Of a DNA stretch of 64,000 nt, positions 10,661 through 53,162 are shown piece after piece. How positions within the stretch are numbered: the stretch's first letter is position 1; every line of letters starts with the position of its first letter. This stretch comes from Candidatus Proelusimicrobium volucris (GTDB lineage: Bacteria; Elusimicrobiota; Elusimicrobia; Elusimicrobiales; Elusimicrobiaceae), in the NCBI GenBank assembly GCA_944324665.1, contig CALUXD010000002.1, positions 478,694 to 542,693 of the forward strand, in the 5' to 3' direction. Under the pieces are notes generated by a model. That model saw only the letters and a list, made by a program, of their open reading frames with translations. It was not told where the DNA came from and ran no database searches. A program made the translations under genes and the position numbers.

Positions 10661-10696
10661 AAAAAAACGGCGGGCCCACTTATTGGCGCCCGCCGC
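10661..10696 (-). terminator. Terminator of the 2029-residue gene
   Basis: On the minus strand CGGCGGGC pairs with GCCCGCCG around a 12-base loop, followed by seven Ts. It begins about 20 bases after the stop codon. Confidence 0.85.
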
Positions 10697-10717: not shown

Positions 10718-13700
10718 CTAGTTGGGAAGAGGATTGTTCAAATCGGTAGTGGGAGGTTCCTCCCCTTTATCCTTACCGCCCTTTATCTTATCCTTATACA
10801 AGCCCACCACATAGTCCGAAGCCTCCTTAAACTCCTGCTTGATAAATTTGTACAAGGTTGAATTATCCAACATTTTATTGGTCGCTATCATACTGGCAAC
10901 CAACATTGCCAGCGAGGCCATTACCCTAGCATAGGGAACATTTAGCCAATCGTTCAGATAGGTTATCGGCATGGATAACCCAACCGCTATGGGCATGGTA
11001 AAACTCATTCCTTGCGATATTTGGCTTTGCAGTTCGGGGTGTTTCCTTATGATATAAGCGAACATCTGCGAAAAGTAATTACCCATGCCTATACTGGCTA
11101 TCACGCCGCTCGATACTATCAGCGAAGGAATATCCGCCATTATACCAGCCAATATCCCCGCCGTACCAAGACCGGAAAGCGAAGAATACACCAAATATGA
11201 CGTACCGGAAGATATCCTGGTAGTCGTTATATTTCCGAGCAATCTGCCGAACATTAACGAACCATACAGAACCCCTATCACCATTACCGTAGCCATATCG
11301 CCGTCGGGTATTATCTGATACAAAGTCGAGGAAAACGCACTGGATACCGAAAGTTCATGCGCCGTCGCCAAAGACATTCCCACCACTACACTCATAACAC
11401 CTTCTTTATGGAGCATAATGTCAAACACTTCTTTTATGTCCTGCCAATAGCTCTTTTTGTTTTCCTGCTTGGCGCTTTCCGCGGCTATCGCGGCGGCTTC
11501 AGTTTCGTCTCCCGCTGAGGCCATTTGGTATACATCGTTCTTAATGTGGTCTATTATAATATTGTCCCTTAAATTAGTACGGTGCACTCTATATCCAGCG
11601 TATGCGCTGTACGCCGCATATAACGGCAAGGATACGTCCCAGCCGAAATTAAAGTCCATCCCAAAAGCCCGTCCCGCATAGTTTAACGCCGAAGGCGCAA
11701 CCAAAAACGCCATCGTACCGATATTCTTGTTTATAAAACTGCGGTTATAGAACAAAATATCTTCCATCGAGAAATCACTCCCGCCTGAAAACAGTTTTTT
11801 GAATTTTTCAATTAAAATATCGGTCGTAACTTTAAGCGCCTCGGAAAAGTTCTGTTCCTCTTTTTTCTTATCCTTGGCAATCGGCATCGCGCCCCTGTTC
11901 ATATTTATCAGGGAGTTGCCCAAGACGTTTCTTATATTTATCGAAAATCCCAAAGCGAACAATGCCAAACCGAGCGATATATTCCTAAGCAATGTCGGCT
12001 CCATTGCGTAAGAATAGCCATAAAAGCCGAATATCGCCGGTACAACTGCCGCAAGCATGGATATTACTATCGATACTTTAAACATCGCCACTTCGCCGAA
12101 TTTCTTTACCAAAGGATTTAACATCGGCGAGAGCAGCCCCGGCAGATAGTTTACCACGTACATCAAATTAGTGGCGAAGGCCTCGCTTACTCCCAAAGAT
12201 TCCGGCAATACGGGGCCCAAAGTTTTGCCCAAGCTGGGGTTAATGTAAAAACCTTCCTTTGTGATGACATCGGCCTTATTGTGATTTTGCATTACTTCAA
12301 TAGGCAGAACATTCTTTGACTGTTCCAATACTTTCAGTAATGTGCCGCGTTGATTTTTTGGTATTCTTACCACGACGGTAGACCCCAAAGAACTCGGCAT
12401 TGCCGACTTGTTCGACATCACCCCGACATTGCCCGAAGGCATCAAAACCAATTTGTCGCCTTGTTTAAGGAAGTTGGCATCCGTTATCACTTTTATGGGC
12501 AATTCTTCCTTGCCATCGGCATTGTAGAGCGGAACGGTAACGGTTTTGGAGGGCTCTATACCGTACTGCCACAATTTTATAGTTATATTTTCTTTTGCGT
12601 CTTTAAGAGCTTGAGCGAACTTTATAAGGCTCTTATTTTCCGTCTTAAGCCTCAAATAGAAGTTGGACATCGTCCTGGGTTTCTTGCCAAACTCCCTAAG
12701 CTCCGCGGTATTATTGTTGAAAACTATATTTGTATATCCGTTTGTATCGAAATCCTCGTGGAAGGAAAGCGACACCGGCAAGACCATATCGCGCCCAGCG
12801 CCGTTTATAACGCTTACGGTATAGCTCTTTCCTTCAAGAGAAACATCAAAATTGCGCCGCCCCGCCGCGGCTTGAGCCTCGCTAGAAAAAGCGATATTGT
12901 CCGCTTCCAGAAAATTCAGCCCTTTATTAAATGACATATAGTCATTTAAGTCGGAAGTCAGCTTCTCGGAGAAATTCCCCCCTTTGCCGTCTATCTTGCG
13001 GTAAAACATAGATACAAGGGAATATTCGCCGGCTTTTCTCAAAGCGCTGAATACGATTACCAATTCCTCTCCGTCATCGCCTTTTATTCTGTATGTAAGT
13101 TTTTCAGGGAAGCCGGCTTCCTGGGAAACTGGCGCATATTCCCGCAGTATGGAGGGCAGCTTAAGCAAATCGCCTTTGCTTATATACTTTTCGCCATTAT
13201 ATTTCCGCCCGTCTTTAAGCCTGTCATCGGAATGTTTAAAAATTATCTTGGTCAAGCCGAAATTGGAGAACGTCCCTCTAAGCCTTTTAAGCTCAGGGCC
13301 CTGTACTACAAGATCCCCTTTTCTGTTAGTAGCCGCATGGCCGTGCAATATCTTAAAAGTAAAGTTATCTACTTTTATCTCCGCCATCAGCTTGGAGGCT
13401 TTGCCCTTCGGATTGGCTTTTACTTCGTCCCAAGCCGCGGAGAGGGCTTTTTCCTCCCCTATTTTCTGCTGGGAGGCCGCTCTCCTTGCCCGTTCGTCCG
13501 CATAATAGGGACGCGTCCTATAAGATGATGTCGAAGATGTTAAATGCGGTATGGCGGGTATCTCGTAGACGTATTTATCCGTTCCGAAAACGCGGGAGAC
13601 ATCGTCGTATCCACCGGGCCAGACAAAATCCCACCCGCCAAGCGCGGCGGCTTTCCTGCTTAATTCCCACGAAAAATTATTATCGCCGTAAACTTTAAAT

Positions 13701-16700
13701 TCGCTTGAGGCGGGAGAATCAAAAAGTTTAACTCCAAAAGATTTTGCCGGGCTTATATTTATATTCAGCAGGCGCCTGTCAAAATAACCATACAAATCTT
13801 TTGCAAACATCAATCCCATTCCCGCCGCGCCCGCTAAGGAATAACCGGCTTTGGAAACATTGCCCAACAGCCCCTTTATACTGAAATCGTTTATAAGATT
13901 ACCGCCGGGCAGCGGCACCCCGCGGAAAAATTCAAATATCTTGGGGTCTATTACGCTTACCGGCTGGACTTTCGGCATAACGGGCATAAGGGGAGTGTTA
14001 GCTCTTGCGGTGCCAAAACTCAGCGTTTTGCCCAAATTCAAACCCTTCTCCGTATTCAGCACCCATTCGGTACCGGCCGTTAAATTCCTGCCAAAAGCGC
14101 CGACTTGCGGCACCGTCGTCGCTACATTATAATTGAATATAAGAGCCGTACCTAATACCGTCGCCCTGTTGTTTATGAATTTAAGGAAATCCGCCGCAGG
14201 CTTCATCTTATGCGCGGAAAGGAAATTGTAAAATTTGTTCACGGGCGTTTTATCGGAAGCGCCGCCAAAGAGTTTAAAGCCTTTCGTATAATTGGGATTG
14301 TACGGAGTGGTAATTCCCAAAGCCTCGGCTATCGTTATGCCTCTTTCGGTTTCCAACGCGGCGATGCCCAAGGTTCCGTCTCCTGAAGGTGCCCAAAAGT
14401 TCTGCCACGGCTTGAGTATATTCTTATTCCACCAGCCAGCGGCTTTATAATCCGCTCTGGCGGAATTTAAACTCTTAAGGGCTGAAGAAAACGTTTCGCC
14501 CGCATTTAAATATCCCAGTTCGCCGGCAGTGTAGAGCGGAGCGGAAGGCACCGTCTTTAAATCCGAAGCCAAAGATTTTATTTCCTTGCCTAAAACCTCA
14601 ATTTCCGAGGCCGCCCCGCCCTCGGCTTTAAGCGAGGCTAGCTTGGATAGTTTTGAATTATATATATTTACGTTTGAATTATAGTCCTTAACTTTTTGAA
14701 GATAAGCCGCGTTTTTGCTTTCCACCGAAGAACCGTATGCTCTGGCTTTTTTAACTAAATTTATCTGAGCCTGCTTAGCCTTATATTCCGCCGTAGCCAA
14801 TTTCGCTTTTGTCACTTGCCTTTGAGTGGGATTGGCGCTGTTTCTCACCGCCATAACAGCTTTTTTGCGGCTGTCATATAAAGATGCCAGTTGCTTATTG
14901 TTAAAATAATTTTCCAACTTTATCGCCTGACGGCTCTCGTTAGTCCCCACACCTGCAGCCGCGGCCGCACCTTTAACCTGTAAAGAAGAGCCTTTTATTC
15001 TCCCGCTCAAACGCAGCATATTGTTGCGCGCGGATATGTATTTGCCCATCTTCGCGTAATTGGCCCTGATATAAGATATCCTCTTCGCGCTGTCGGCTAT
15101 GCGCCCCGCTTTTACCGCGGTATATGTGGATTTACTCAAAGCAAAAGCCTTCCCGCCCAGTTTTGCAAGCGCAACCGTTCCCCAGATAAGGAGTAATATA
15201 TCTCCCGCGAAGGCGGCGTTGTCTAAATAGTCAAACCTCTTGTTGCGCGCTTTCCTTGCCGCAAGCTGATTAGGGGTTATTACGGCGCCGGAATTAAGTT
15301 TCCCTTTTATCGCGGGATACTTGGCCAGCAAATCTTTGTCTATATCGTATTCCTGCAAAGCGGTTATGTCGCCTAAAGTCAAATTGGCAAAAGCCGCCGC
15401 CATATTCCCGGCAGCTTCCGCGCTCAGCCCCGATTTGCCGCTTATCAAAGCCCCGGCCAAAAACGGTTTTATGCCGCCTTCCAGCCCTTTATCCGCGCCG
15501 TATTCCTTAAGTATCGCCAAAGCCTCCTTACCGCCGTCCTCGGCAAGTAAAAGAGCGATGTCGGTAAAGGAGTTGCCGTAAAGATAATCGCCACTGTACT
15601 GGGTTTGGTAAGAGGCTTTGCCCAAAAATTGTCCGCCCGCCGTGCGCGCTTTTGAAGAGTATAAAGTTAAATTCAGATATTCGCCGAAACTTGCCCCTTC
15701 CTTTTCCTTTAATGTATAGCGGGAGAGCATCTCTCTTAAAGAAGAATATTCTTCCGCCGCCAACAGGGCGGAAAATCCGTTGCTAAGTATTTGCCCAAAG
15801 CCAGCTCCGCTCTCCGAGGCGTATATCACGCGTTTGACGGCCTTTGCGTAACGGCCGCCGTCTTTGGCCGAAACATAAGAACCGATAATTATCGTGTCTA
15901 TAATATCGCCCAGCAGTACTGCGGCAATCTTTTTTTCTTTTTTCCCGCTGGTTATGCCAAGTTTAAGCGAGTTTAGATTTTGCTTTTCCAAACGGGAAAC
16001 AGCATAATTGTATATATTCTCTTTTTCGGCGGCGGTCATAACCGCTTTGCCGCCTATTTTAAGATGGATAAGGTAGCGCAAAACGTTTGAGGATAAATTT
16101 TCCGCGCCGACGGCTTCTATATACTTGCGCAGAACTTTATAAGCAGAAGCGTCAACCTTAGTTTTATTTGCCTTTCGCCAAGCTATCTCTTCTTTTGCCT
16201 CTTTTTGATATTGGGCATAATAATCTTTAAGGGGATATCCCTCTTTCAATTTGGCCGAGGCGGCATCCAGAGGGCTTTTATACGGTATTGCGCTTAGCGA
16301 AGGATTCTTTTTTAGATATTCCCGCGCCGCTTCATCTATTATTGTATTGTAAAATTTTTCATATTCCTTTAAAGGCATTACCCTGGGAGTAATAAAATAA
16401 GCCGCCAAATAGGCCATCAAATCGTTTTCAAGGTTTTTTATATCCTTTGCGCCCACCCTTTTTACGTACATAGGGCTCATTGATCCGTATTTAGTTTTCC
16501 CCGTCTTTATCAGCGCGGCGAGTTTGGCGCGGCTTTTATTGGAATCCAAAGACTTTAAAATTAAATCGGTTTCCCTGTTAAGGGAGGCTTCATAAATGTT
16601 GCCTTCTTCTCCTTTCAAGAATAAATCTTCCAATTTGGCATCAAAATCCGACAAAACGGCCGCGTCGAAGCCGACATAAGGCAAAGATTCATCCCATTGG

Positions 16701-16807
16701 GAAAAATCAACTCCAGCGAAAGCCGCCGTATTACATTCAAAAAGAATAGTAAAAGACAAAACTATCGAAATAATTTTTACGCCCAAAGAAGAAAGAATCT
16801 TTTTCAT
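10718..16807 (-). CDS. Giant secreted protein fused to a C-terminal MFS-like membrane module
   Basis: A 2029-residue protein I cannot assign to a named family. A signal peptide with basic start and hydrophobic core ends near A-A-F-A (residue 31). Residues ~32-1530 are a long, mostly soluble region rich in Ala/Lys/Ser with helical and coiled stretches, one hydrophobic patch near 530, and later beta-rich parts. From about 1540 to 1985 there are roughly ten hydrophobic segments in two blocks with a charged linker, resembling the two halves of a major facilitator transporter (for example VIGVLYGSLMFGRLLGNI in the second half). The tail is Lys/Glu/Pro-rich. It has its own long leader and terminator and no operon partner. 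If exported, the large domain would be periplasmic and the C-terminal module would sit in the inner membrane. Function unknown. Confidence 0.85.
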   Translation of the reverse strand: MKKILSSLGVKIISIVLSFTILFECNTAAFAGVDFSQWDESLPYVGFDAAVLSDFDAKLEDLFLKGEEGNIYEASLNRETDLILKSLDSNKSRAKLAALIKTGKTKYGSMSPMYVKRVGAKDIKNLENDLMAYLAAYFITPRVMPLKEYEKFYNTIIDEAAREYLKKNPSLSAIPYKSPLDAASAKLKEGYPLKDYYAQYQKEAKEEIAWRKANKTKVDASAYKVLRKYIEAVGAENLSSNVLRYLIHLKIGGKAVMTAAEKENIYNYAVSRLEKQNLNSLKLGITSGKKEKKIAAVLLGDIIDTIIIGSYVSAKDGGRYAKAVKRVIYASESGAGFGQILSNGFSALLAAEEYSSLREMLSRYTLKEKEGASFGEYLNLTLYSSKARTAGGQFLGKASYQTQYSGDYLYGNSFTDIALLLAEDGGKEALAILKEYGADKGLEGGIKPFLAGALISGKSGLSAEAAGNMAAAFANLTLGDITALQEYDIDKDLLAKYPAIKGKLNSGAVITPNQLAARKARNKRFDYLDNAAFAGDILLLIWGTVALAKLGGKAFALSKSTYTAVKAGRIADSAKRISYIRANYAKMGKYISARNNMLRLSGRIKGSSLQVKGAAAAAGVGTNESRQAIKLENYFNNKQLASLYDSRKKAVMAVRNSANPTQRQVTKAKLATAEYKAKQAQINLVKKARAYGSSVESKNAAYLQKVKDYNSNVNIYNSKLSKLASLKAEGGAASEIEVLGKEIKSLASDLKTVPSAPLYTAGELGYLNAGETFSSALKSLNSARADYKAAGWWNKNILKPWQNFWAPSGDGTLGIAALETERGITIAEALGITTPYNPNYTKGFKLFGGASDKTPVNKFYNFLSAHKMKPAADFLKFINNRATVLGTALIFNYNVATTVPQVGAFGRNLTAGTEWVLNTEKGLNLGKTLSFGTARANTPLMPVMPKVQPVSVIDPKIFEFFRGVPLPGGNLINDFSIKGLLGNVSKAGYSLAGAAGMGLMFAKDLYGYFDRRLLNINISPAKSFGVKLFDSPASSEFKVYGDNNFSWELSRKAAALGGWDFVWPGGYDDVSRVFGTDKYVYEIPAIPHLTSSTSSYRTRPYYADERARRAASQQKIGEEKALSAAWDEVKANPKGKASKLMAEIKVDNFTFKILHGHAATNRKGDLVVQGPELKRLRGTFSNFGLTKIIFKHSDDRLKDGRKYNGEKYISKGDLLKLPSILREYAPVSQEAGFPEKLTYRIKGDDGEELVIVFSALRKAGEYSLVSMFYRKIDGKGGNFSEKLTSDLNDYMSFNKGLNFLEADNIAFSSEAQAAAGRRNFDVSLEGKSYTVSVINGAGRDMVLPVSLSFHEDFDTNGYTNIVFNNNTAELREFGKKPRTMSNFYLRLKTENKSLIKFAQALKDAKENITIKLWQYGIEPSKTVTVPLYNADGKEELPIKVITDANFLKQGDKLVLMPSGNVGVMSNKSAMPSSLGSTVVVRIPKNQRGTLLKVLEQSKNVLPIEVMQNHNKADVITKEGFYINPSLGKTLGPVLPESLGVSEAFATNLMYVVNYLPGLLSPMLNPLVKKFGEVAMFKVSIVISMLAAVVPAIFGFYGYSYAMEPTLLRNISLGLALFALGFSINIRNVLGNSLINMNRGAMPIAKDKKKEEQNFSEALKVTTDILIEKFKKLFSGGSDFSMEDILFYNRSFINKNIGTMAFLVAPSALNYAGRAFGMDFNFGWDVSLPLYAAYSAYAGYRVHRTNLRDNIIIDHIKNDVYQMASAGDETEAAAIAAESAKQENKKSYWQDIKEVFDIMLHKEGVMSVVVGMSLATAHELSVSSAFSSTLYQIIPDGDMATVMVIGVLYGSLMFGRLLGNITTTRISSGTSYLVYSSLSGLGTAGILAGIMADIPSLIVSSGVIASIGMGNYFSQMFAYIIRKHPELQSQISQGMSFTMPIAVGLSMPITYLNDWLNVPYARVMASLAMLVASMIATNKMLDNSTLYKFIKQEFKEASDYVVGLYKDKIKGGKDKGEEPPTTDLNNPLPN

Positions 16808-16875: not shown

Positions 16876-16908
16876 CCAAAAAAAAGGCGTCTAAATATTT
16901 TTAGGCAC
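16876..16908 (-). terminator. Attenuator-like terminator inside the leader of the 2029-residue gene
   Basis: On the minus strand AAAGGTGCCTAAA, loop AATA and TTTAGACGCCTTT form a 13-bp stem with one mismatch and one wobble, followed by a run of Ts (eight in all). It lies about 70 bases before the ATG and inside the predicted 5' leader, so it would stop transcription unless antiterminated. Alternatively it ends a separate small RNA. Confidence 0.7.
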
Positions 16909-16935
16909 CTTTTCCGAAATCCGATTTTATTTTTA

Positions 16936-17138: not shown

Positions 17139-17210
17139 ATTTTATTCTTTTTTCGAGTTATCCCTCAAGCAAATTTTAGGCCCATTCTTAGCTGGGTCTT
17201 AAGTCCTAAG
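17139..17210 (-). promoter_or_regulatory. Promoter of the 2029-residue gene with the shared GGnCTAAAGACC element
   Basis: Minus strand: element TTAGGACTTAAGACCCA (17209-17193), second half-site near 17184-17174, -35 TTGAGG (17168-17163), 18-base spacer, -10 TAAAAT (17144-17139). Transcription from here would give a leader of about 325 bases containing the structured RNA and the attenuator-like terminator. The same arrangement occurs before the genes at 35128, 47098, 48211 and 52161. Confidence 0.6.
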
Positions 17211-47097: not shown

Positions 47098-47958
47098 TTA
47101 TTGTTCGTACACCGGCTTTGTTTGGAAGTTGGAAAAATTGTATTTGCTCTCCCAATTATTTTTAAACCATTCGTCTCCGATTTTCAAATCCTGCTTTAAA
47201 GATTTTTCTTTTTCTTCTCGTTCCTCTTCCTGCGCCGCTTTTAAAAGATAACCGGTAAATTCCCTATTTTCTTTGGAAATTGCAAATTCCACCTGTTCTT
47301 TAAGAAGTTTGTATAAATTCTCGTCCTCAGATATTATTGAGCAGACAAGTTTCCTGTACGGCATCAAATATGCCGACAAAGCGAAAGCCTCCGGATGTTC
47401 ATGAGCGGTATTGGTCAAAATACGTTTTATCTCCACCCTGTCGGACGATACCGGCGTTTGATATGGAGGCTCGTTATTAGAAGCAACAAGATATTCTATC
47501 CCTATTGCCGCGGCTACAAATAATAATGCCCCCATTCCTTTTTTGGCGTAGCGCGCGCTTCTTATTTTATCTACAAAAGCGCGCCGCACCTCTTTGGGTT
47601 GGCTTTTATAAATTATATATTTCTTAATATCCGAAAAATGGCTGTTAACGAAACGCCGCCGCTCTTTGCTTGGCATTTTGTGCCTCAGCCATTTTACGAT
47701 AGCCTCTTCCTTCTTGAGCATACGTCTTTCAAAGATATAATCGTCAACAACCAAATACAAATATCCGCCTATTAGCAGACTAACAGCCGTAGCCCCCAGC
47801 GGGTAGCCTTCTTCTGGCTGCAAATCATCGGGCAGCTGCGCAAGTAAAACTTCCACGTCAGTTTCGCTTATTGTCCGTTCTCGCGCAAATAACTCCGCGG
47901 GAAAAGAGATACAAAATATATTTAACGCAATGAATATTAATAATACTTTCTTCAACAT
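47098..47958 (-). CDS. Exported protein of unknown function, paralogue of the 48211 gene
   Basis: A 286-residue protein: signal peptide ending near L-F-A-R, hydrophobic segment ~52-72 (AVSLLIGGYLYLVV), a basic middle, second hydrophobic segment ~142-158 (GALLFVAAAIGIEYLVA), and a C-terminal helical domain rich in Glu/Lys. The last ~110 residues align with the end of the 321-residue protein next door (A-L-x-x-Y, then I-x-x-E-N/D-x-x, then K-x-Q-V-E-x-A-x-S-x-E-N). No family recognised. Transcribed from a shared-element promoter. Confidence 0.72.
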   Translation of the reverse strand: MLKKVLLIFIALNIFCISFPAELFARERTISETDVEVLLAQLPDDLQPEEGYPLGATAVSLLIGGYLYLVVDDYIFERRMLKKEEAIVKWLRHKMPSKERRRFVNSHFSDIKKYIIYKSQPKEVRRAFVDKIRSARYAKKGMGALLFVAAAIGIEYLVASNNEPPYQTPVSSDRVEIKRILTNTAHEHPEAFALSAYLMPYRKLVCSIISEDENLYKLLKEQVEFAISKENREFTGYLLKAAQEEEREEKEKSLKQDLKIGDEWFKNNWESKYNFSNFQTKPVYEQ

Positions 47959-52160: not shown

Positions 52161-53162
52161 TTATAAAGAGGTATTGCCGTTCAAGTCTTTGGTAAGTTTT
52201 ATCCCTTTTGTTTCCACATTTTCTTGCATCAGCTTGGTAAATTCGGAAGAGAATAAAGCATACTTATTAGTCTTGGTATAGGTGAGTATTTGATCGTCGC
52301 TTACCGTTTTTATTCCCACAAGAATATTCTTGTCTGAAGACGCACGGTGAAACAAAGGCTCGCCAAAATAACTTCTCCTGGCTTTGCCGTTTACCGTTAT
52401 GAACCCGTCTTTTACCGAACTTATGGTTTGCTCTCCGCCTACCGGCGAGAAAAATACTCTCTTTAAAAACGATTCCTCGACATTGTCTTTCGGATCAATA
52501 TTGGAAAGTATTACCGTTCCGTAATTGTCCTTCACTCCAAAAGTAACTTTATCTGAGCTTACGGCCCACTCCCACAATCTGACACAAACATTATCTGCCG
52601 TAGTACCTTTTTCCTGTAAACACAAATTGCTTATTTTTATCAAAGCGGCACCGCTTTTGTAATCAATAAATACTTTGGATATTTCACGCGCATCAAATTC
52701 AAGCGATCTTCCGTTAAGCTCCAATTCCACGCTAAGCGGGGTAAATTCCACCAAAGCGCCGGGGGCGTCGTCCCCTACATATTCCATTCTGTCAACTCTC
52801 AAACATTTCTCATGAGTAAGCAAGTAATCTTTATTTATAAGAGTGCCATAACAATGCCCCTCATAGAAGCCCGCGCCTTCGCCCCAAAGACCGTCTTGTT
52901 TATAGTTTAGATTTATCCTATAAGGAGTGCCATCGGCCTCATAGTCTTCTATAAACAAATCCCTTTTATATGTAGTGGTAAGTTTAAAGACCATCGGAGA
53001 ATAGTTATACTTATAACTCCCCTGTTCCGCTGCAGCGTTTATACGGCTTTCTATTTCTTTGTTCAGCTCCTCATTCGCCATAAACGACGAGAAGTCGGCA
53101 CAATAAGCCGCGCTGCCGATCCCTAATAAAAACGTAAAGACTAGTAATTTCTTTATTGACAT
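52161..53162 (-). CDS. Secreted trypsin-fold protein lacking the catalytic triad
   Basis: A 333-residue protein with a signal peptide ending Y-C-A (residue 21). The mature region has the layout of an S1 (trypsin/chymotrypsin) domain: G-H-C-Y-G-T-L-I-N-K-D-Y-L-L-T-H-E-K-C where proteases have C-G-G-x-L-I...V-L-T-A-A-H-C, then S-G-A-A-L-I-K-I for D-I-A-L-I-K-L, and S-Y-F-G-E-P-L-F for G-D-S-G-G-P-L. In that alignment His, Asp and Ser are all altered, so it is probably a pseudoprotease. Assignment of the fold rests on these by-eye matches. Its promoter has the shared element. Confidence 0.6.
   Translation of the reverse strand: MSIKKLLVFTFLLGIGSAAYCADFSSFMANEELNKEIESRINAAAEQGSYKYNYSPMVFKLTTTYKRDLFIEDYEADGTPYRINLNYKQDGLWGEGAGFYEGHCYGTLINKDYLLTHEKCLRVDRMEYVGDDAPGALVEFTPLSVELELNGRSLEFDAREISKVFIDYKSGAALIKISNLCLQEKGTTADNVCVRLWEWAVSSDKVTFGVKDNYGTVILSNIDPKDNVEESFLKRVFFSPVGGEQTISSVKDGFITVNGKARRSYFGEPLFHRASSDKNILVGIKTVSDDQILTYTKTNKYALFSSEFTKLMQENVETKGIKLTKDLNGNTSL

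What the first reader, a model, noticed from the sequence alone, without database searches (positions are those of the whole stretch)
10718..16807. 2029-residue protein joining a ~1500-residue exported domain to an MFS-like membrane module
A signal peptide is followed by a very long soluble region and then about ten membrane segments in two blocks resembling the two halves of a major facilitator. MFS proteins do not normally carry a cleavable signal peptide and a domain of this size. The gene is solitary, has a 325-base structured leader and belongs to the candidate regulon. It could be a surface or periplasmic machine with its own transporter, or the MFS-like part could be a structural anchor.
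Basis: partly seen in the sequence, partly recalled or inferred. Interest (0 to 1): 0.72.

Follow-up and report, generated by a model that had tools for sequence, protein, structure and literature searches.

The report
Giant exported protein with transporter module
This gut bacterium (family Elusimicrobiaceae) carries a 2,029-residue protein in which a very large, partly exported region is joined to a complete transporter-like (MFS-fold) membrane module; it belongs to a lineage-only family of giant proteins that share one front part but carry different rear modules (transporter, protease or kinase).

Summary
The 2,029-aa ORF is real: four full-length orthologs (about 51-83% identity) keep signal peptide, long region and membrane module in one protein. 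The C-terminal module is a genuine MFS fold. Pfam MFS_1 matches 36 of 46 module members (best 7e-12), and AlphaFold2 on a full-length relative gives 12 helices (Z 36.4, rmsd 3.1 over 373 residues to FLVCR2). Many polar residues inside the helices are nearly invariant, so a passive anchor is unlikely. The duplicated beta domain plus MFS is one unit, found in 60+ Elusimicrobiaceae genomes, mostly with other N-terminal parts; no match turned up outside that family. The N-terminal domain recurs in the same genome on other giant proteins ending in trypsin-like proteases, a P-loop (zeta-toxin-like) kinase or other MFS modules. The "1500-residue exported domain" is doubtful: a conserved hydrophobic segment (531-551) and MFS orientation suggest only about 32-530 may be outside, but this is unresolved. 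The gene is solitary, has a conserved attenuator-like leader hairpin, and sits behind an operator found 7 times in the genome (0 in control), always before signal-peptide genes. Substrate and function are unknown; transport or sensing is inferred.

The parts
10718..16807 (-). Gene for the 2029-aa protein
16715..16807 (-). Signal peptide, residues 1-31
   Evidence: sequence; similar small-residue (A-x-A) endings in orthologs and paralogs
15218..16714 (-). Shared N-terminal helical domain, residues 32-530 (exported side)
   Evidence: homologous to the N-termini of giant paralogs; AF2 confident only for about 84-280
15155..15217 (-). Candidate membrane segment TM0, residues 531-551
   Evidence: score 2.3 (orthologs 2.3-3.0; soluble controls 3.9 or higher); second-lowest window of the family average
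12854..15154 (-). Middle region, residues 552-1318; 552-1040 shared with some paralogs, side of the membrane unresolved
12287..12853 (-). Duplicated beta domain, residues 1319-1507
   Evidence: internal repeat by hhalign 94.5%, E 8e-8
10865..12286 (-). MFS-fold module, residues about 1508-1981 (helix 1 polar, with L1526 G1527 K1528 T1529)
10721..10864 (-). C-terminal tail ending in DLNNPLPN, a motif kept in relatives
17166..17208 (-). Operator TAGGACTTAAGACCC-N11-GGGCCTAAAA...CTTG, overlapping the -35 box
17139..17168 (-). Promoter-like site TTGAGG-18-TAAAAT
16878..16910 (-). Leader hairpin followed by a T-run (attenuator-like), conserved in all 5 orthologs
10661..10695 (-). GC-rich hairpin with T-run after the stop codon (terminator-like)
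   Evidence: sequence printed; its loop is longer than the scan allows

Best explanation
This is most likely an inner-membrane protein of a lineage-specific, module-swapping family of giant proteins. Shown: a signal peptide (by sequence); an N-terminal helical domain shared with paralogs whose C-termini are proteases, a kinase or other MFS modules; and a C-terminal unit of a duplicated beta domain plus a complete MFS fold with nearly invariant polar residues in the membrane. Inferred: the N-terminal domain acts as a common envelope address or docking scaffold; the MFS part still binds a small molecule and either transports it or, like a transporter-derived receptor, senses it; the beta domain next to helix 1 couples that event to the giant soluble part. 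The favoured topology is residues 32-530 in the periplasm, one crossing at 531-551, 552-1507 in the cytoplasm, then twelve helices with the C-tail inside. The alternative is that everything up to about 1540 is periplasmic and helix 1 does not span.
For: MFS: Pfam MFS_1 in 36/46 module members, best 7.1e-12, relative L045 above the curated cutoff; AF2 pLDDT 78, Z 36.4 and rmsd 3.1 over 373 residues to FLVCR2, model residues 565-1105. Orientation: loops on one side carry 0-0.2 K+R on average, on the other side 1.1-17. Functional core: K1528, T1529, N1553, K1694, N1695, N1709, H1817, E1818, R1855, N1910, Q1914, T1937 at least 90% conserved in 46 sequences. TM0; the kinase paralog has an intact Walker A (GPNGSGKT) downstream of its TM0, which would need ATP and so suggests cytoplasm. 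Module swapping: Trypsin_2, zeta/AAA_33 and MFS ends on the same N-domain; beta+MFS on other N-termini in many genomes of the sister genus. Paralog MFS modules are related but distinct (hhalign 97.6-99.7%) with different helix 1 sequences, as expected for different ligands.
Against: No ligand, activity or partner is known. Short relatives (e.g. L090) have a signal peptide but no TM0, which conflicts with a cytoplasmic beta domain if helix 1 spans. The helix 1 segment is too polar to insert alone (best window 10.2 against 2.5-5.9 for the other helices). Trypsin-like domains downstream of TM0 in paralogs are more usual outside the cytoplasm. The AF2 model of the window's own N-terminal part is poor (pLDDT 47.6). 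The MFS model is of a relative about 28% identical, not of the window protein.
Confidence: 0.5

Rival explanations
1. Fully exported version: all of residues 32 to about 1540 is periplasmic, helix 1 has lost its spanning role, the MFS module has 11 membrane helices, and the giant domain captures or presents a substrate to it.
For: The helix 1 segment is far too polar to insert (10.2) while paralog groups B, C and D keep a hydrophobic helix 1; short relatives have a signal peptide and no other membrane segment before the module; the early mature region of the window protein is acidic, as in exported proteins.
Against: TM0 at 531-551 is hydrophobic in all orthologs and would need a second crossing, for which the only candidate (about 982-1002) is borderline; AF2 with structural alignment places the helix 1 segment as a normal helix 1; the ATP-binding motif in a paralog downstream of TM0.
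Confidence: 0.3
2. The MFS fold is only a membrane anchor for a giant surface or periplasmic machine and no longer handles a ligand.
For: Paralogs do without it and carry protease or kinase ends on the same N-domain; helix 1 is unusually polar and the usual loop 2-3 motif is altered (K-K-[YF]-G-E instead of D-R-x-G-R).
Against: Strong conservation of polar residues inside the helices, and helices 7, 8 and 10 are more conserved (mean entropy 1.1-1.3) than the beta domain (1.96).
Confidence: 0.12
3. Polymorphic-toxin-like system: a common exported N-domain delivers different C-terminal effectors to other cells.
For: Constant N-terminus with variable C-termini, one of them zeta-toxin-like with an intact Walker A, others trypsin-like with H, D and S residues.
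Against: A 12-helix MFS module is not a plausible delivered effector; this gene is solitary, with no recognisable delivery part beside it; PADLOC gave nothing for this protein.
Confidence: 0.08

Closest known systems
Major facilitator superfamily (PF07690; e.g. FLVCR1/2, SPNS2, SotB, MdfA structures)
   Same: Profile similarity and the complete 12-helix fold; loop charges show the normal orientation
   Different: Preceded by about 1500 residues with a signal peptide; polar helix 1 with LGKT; the loop 2-3 motif reads K-K-[YF]-G-E instead of the common D-R-x-G-R (that motif is frequent in MFS but not required); long charged loops 4-5 and 6-7
MFS proteins with an added soluble domain (SPX-MFS vacuolar phosphate transporters, seen in PMC10392026; LplT-Aas fusions, from own knowledge)
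   Same: A soluble domain fused to an MFS permease
   Different: Those domains are cytoplasmic, much smaller and unrelated as far as I know; none has a signal peptide
Polymorphic toxins
   Same: One constant N-terminal part with interchangeable C-terminal modules in the family
   Different: This member ends in an MFS module, not a toxin; no delivery or immunity part identified

Membership tests
Major facilitator superfamily | Sequence similarity to the MFS profile | tested here: met
   36/46 module members match MFS_1 at E up to 0.1, best 7.1e-12; L045 40.4 bits against cutoff 33.4; the window protein alone is below cutoff (E 0.0034, 16.8 bits)
Major facilitator superfamily | Two six-helix bundles, 12 helices in the MFS arrangement | tested here: met
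   AF2 of relative L090, Z 36.4, rmsd 3.1 over 373; the window protein aligns over the whole module. Tested on a relative, not on the window protein itself
Major facilitator superfamily | Transport of a small solute | not testable with these tools
   conserved polar in-membrane residues are compatible
Polymorphic toxins | C-terminal toxin domain | tested here: not met
   the C-terminus is an MFS module; a zeta-like domain occurs only in paralog L009 and its ortholog
Polymorphic toxins | Adjacent immunity gene | not tested
   gene is solitary; neighbours of the paralogs were not examined

The most novel reading that the evidence does not exclude
A family-wide toolkit of giant envelope proteins in which one exported docking domain is combined with interchangeable membrane or enzymatic modules, the MFS versions being transporter-derived receptors or one-protein capture-and-transport machines that link a periplasmic domain to a cytoplasmic beta domain through the permease.
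Probability: 0.3. Interest if true: 0.75.

Novelty: new variant of a known kind. Interest (0 to 1): 0.55.

Why it matters
Small-genome (about 1.5 Mb) gut Elusimicrobiaceae devote several 1,500-2,400-residue genes to this family, yet no family model searched here covers the N-terminal part. If the topology is right, it is an MFS fold coupled through one chain to large domains on both sides of the membrane, an arrangement for which no precedent was found here, and it would make the cell envelope biology of a nearly uncultured phylum testable.

Tried and rejected
Signal peptide serving as MFS helix 1 with the giant domain inserted after it: rejected, because the structural alignment finds helix 1 at model residues from about 565 on, the signal helix is not confidently placed (pLDDT about 55), and paralogs without MFS keep the same kind of signal peptide. 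Helix 1 absent: first inferred from hydropathy, then corrected by profile alignment to paralogs. Folding the window N-terminus with 5 orthologs gave no usable model, and the structural comparison only short helix matches (best Z 7.6 over 68 residues), which says nothing for or against a known fold. PDB sequence search, NCBIfam and PADLOC: no useful match for the window protein. Phage and plasmid collections: none for the module. A combined N+C alignment for the genome scan failed, so the N-domain was not searched outside the phylum. Literature: no report of this architecture in the held library; the E. minutum genome paper is not held.

Full report
What is there. The ORF at 10718-16807 (-) encodes 2029 residues. 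The genome is Elusimicrobiaceae: named relatives from the genome scan are Elusimicrobium, Elusimicrobiaceae and Avelusimicrobium MAGs, several from guts and rumen, and one related genome has 1,643,562 bp in one contig, which is the size of E. minutum Pei191 as I recall it. Four orthologs keep the whole architecture (2028, 2029, 1996 and 1839 aa).

The C-terminal module. Pfam sees MFS_1 only weakly in the window protein (E 0.0034), but 36 of 46 module members match, the best at 7e-12. AlphaFold2 on a full-length 1146-aa relative (L090, 46 sequences) gave pLDDT 78, and structural alignment gives Z 36.4, rmsd 3.1 over 373 residues to FLVCR2, with near-complete coverage of SotB and others. Hydropathy shows 11 helices; helix 1 is the polar stretch 1508-1538 with L1526-G1527-K1528-T1529, aligned by profile to a hydrophobic helix 1 of paralog modules. 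K+R counts put the helix 1 N-side, the long loops and the C-tail in the cytoplasm. Polar residues in helices 1, 2, 5, 7, 8 and 10 are nearly invariant. Directly upstream lies a beta domain (1319-1507) made of two repeats (hhalign 94.5%); beta plus MFS travel together. The ends of the relatives share a DLNNPLPN / NLDDAAPAQ-like tail.

Distribution. In 341 Elusimicrobiota genomes the module is found in 69, in 3 of 100 genera, all of one family; a scan of 84,980 species genomes returned 48 loci, and every record title that names a group names Elusimicrobia (a few titles say only 'uncultured bacterium'); phage and plasmid collections gave none. In a second genus it is fused to other N-terminal parts, such as a confident all-helical, HEAT-like domain (pLDDT about 95). 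I saw no stand-alone module; the shorter hits run off contig ends or have an uncertain start.

The N-terminal part. Residues 1-700 (to about 1040 in some) are shared with giant paralogs in the same and related genomes. Their C-termini differ: Trypsin_2 domains with H, D and S at the expected places, a zeta-toxin/AAA_33 kinase with intact Walker A, or other MFS modules. The same genome has five further giant paralogs. The N-domain has no PDB or NCBIfam relative by sequence; its AF2 model is poor.

Topology. A cleaved signal peptide puts the following residues outside. A canonical 12-helix MFS needs its N-side inside. Residues 531-551 are the obvious return crossing: they score like the MFS helices, below all soluble controls, are the second most hydrophobic window of the family average after the signal peptide, and are followed by K/R-rich sequence; the kinase paralog places an ATP-binding domain after this point. 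Against this, short relatives have a signal peptide and no such segment, their early mature parts are basic, and the polar helix 1 would hardly insert alone. I favour 13 crossings at roughly 0.55 to 0.6 and give the 11-crossing, fully exported version roughly 0.3 to 0.35. The scoring scale is a home-made sum on the biological hydrophobicity scale with only seven soluble control proteins, so it is a guide, not a predictor.

Regulation and neighbourhood. The gene is monocistronic. The operator TAGGNCTTAAGNCC-N~11-GGNC...CTTG is conserved in all five orthologs, occurs 7 times in the genome with 0 in the reversed control, and all seven lie before genes for proteins that start with a signal peptide, four of them giant family members. 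The leader ends in a conserved hairpin plus T-run upstream of the start codon, which suggests attenuation; no Rfam family fits.

Verdict. A real, lineage-restricted giant protein, a new architecture for a known fold, with function inferred only.

Noticed in passing
window 36001, 48047, 49264, 53243 and seven genome sites: Operator TDGGNCYTWDGDCC with a downstream half-site next to the -35 box; 6 core matches in the window against 0.21 expected. The genes behind the seven full genome sites, and those starting at 47958, 49176 and 53162 in the window, begin with signal peptides: a regulon of exported proteins.
   Followed up: partly
L009:3522-8333 (-): Giant paralog with the same exported N-domain and a C-terminal zeta-toxin/AAA_33 P-loop kinase domain.
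   Followed up: partly
L010:3110-10165 (-), L072, L065, L069: Giant paralogs with trypsin-like domains; L010 shows two such stretches with H, D and S residues.
   Followed up: partly
L053:96-13628 (+): A 4510-aa ORF in a congener ends in the same beta+MFS module; genome G018 (E. minutum size) has a 3968-aa ORF with part of it.
   Followed up: no
L085, L095, L097, L100: Proteins with the module followed by a second partial copy in the same chain.
   Followed up: no
window 52161-53162 (-): Regulon member of 333 aa that reads like a trypsin-fold protein whose usual catalytic His position is changed (LLTHEKC).
   Followed up: no
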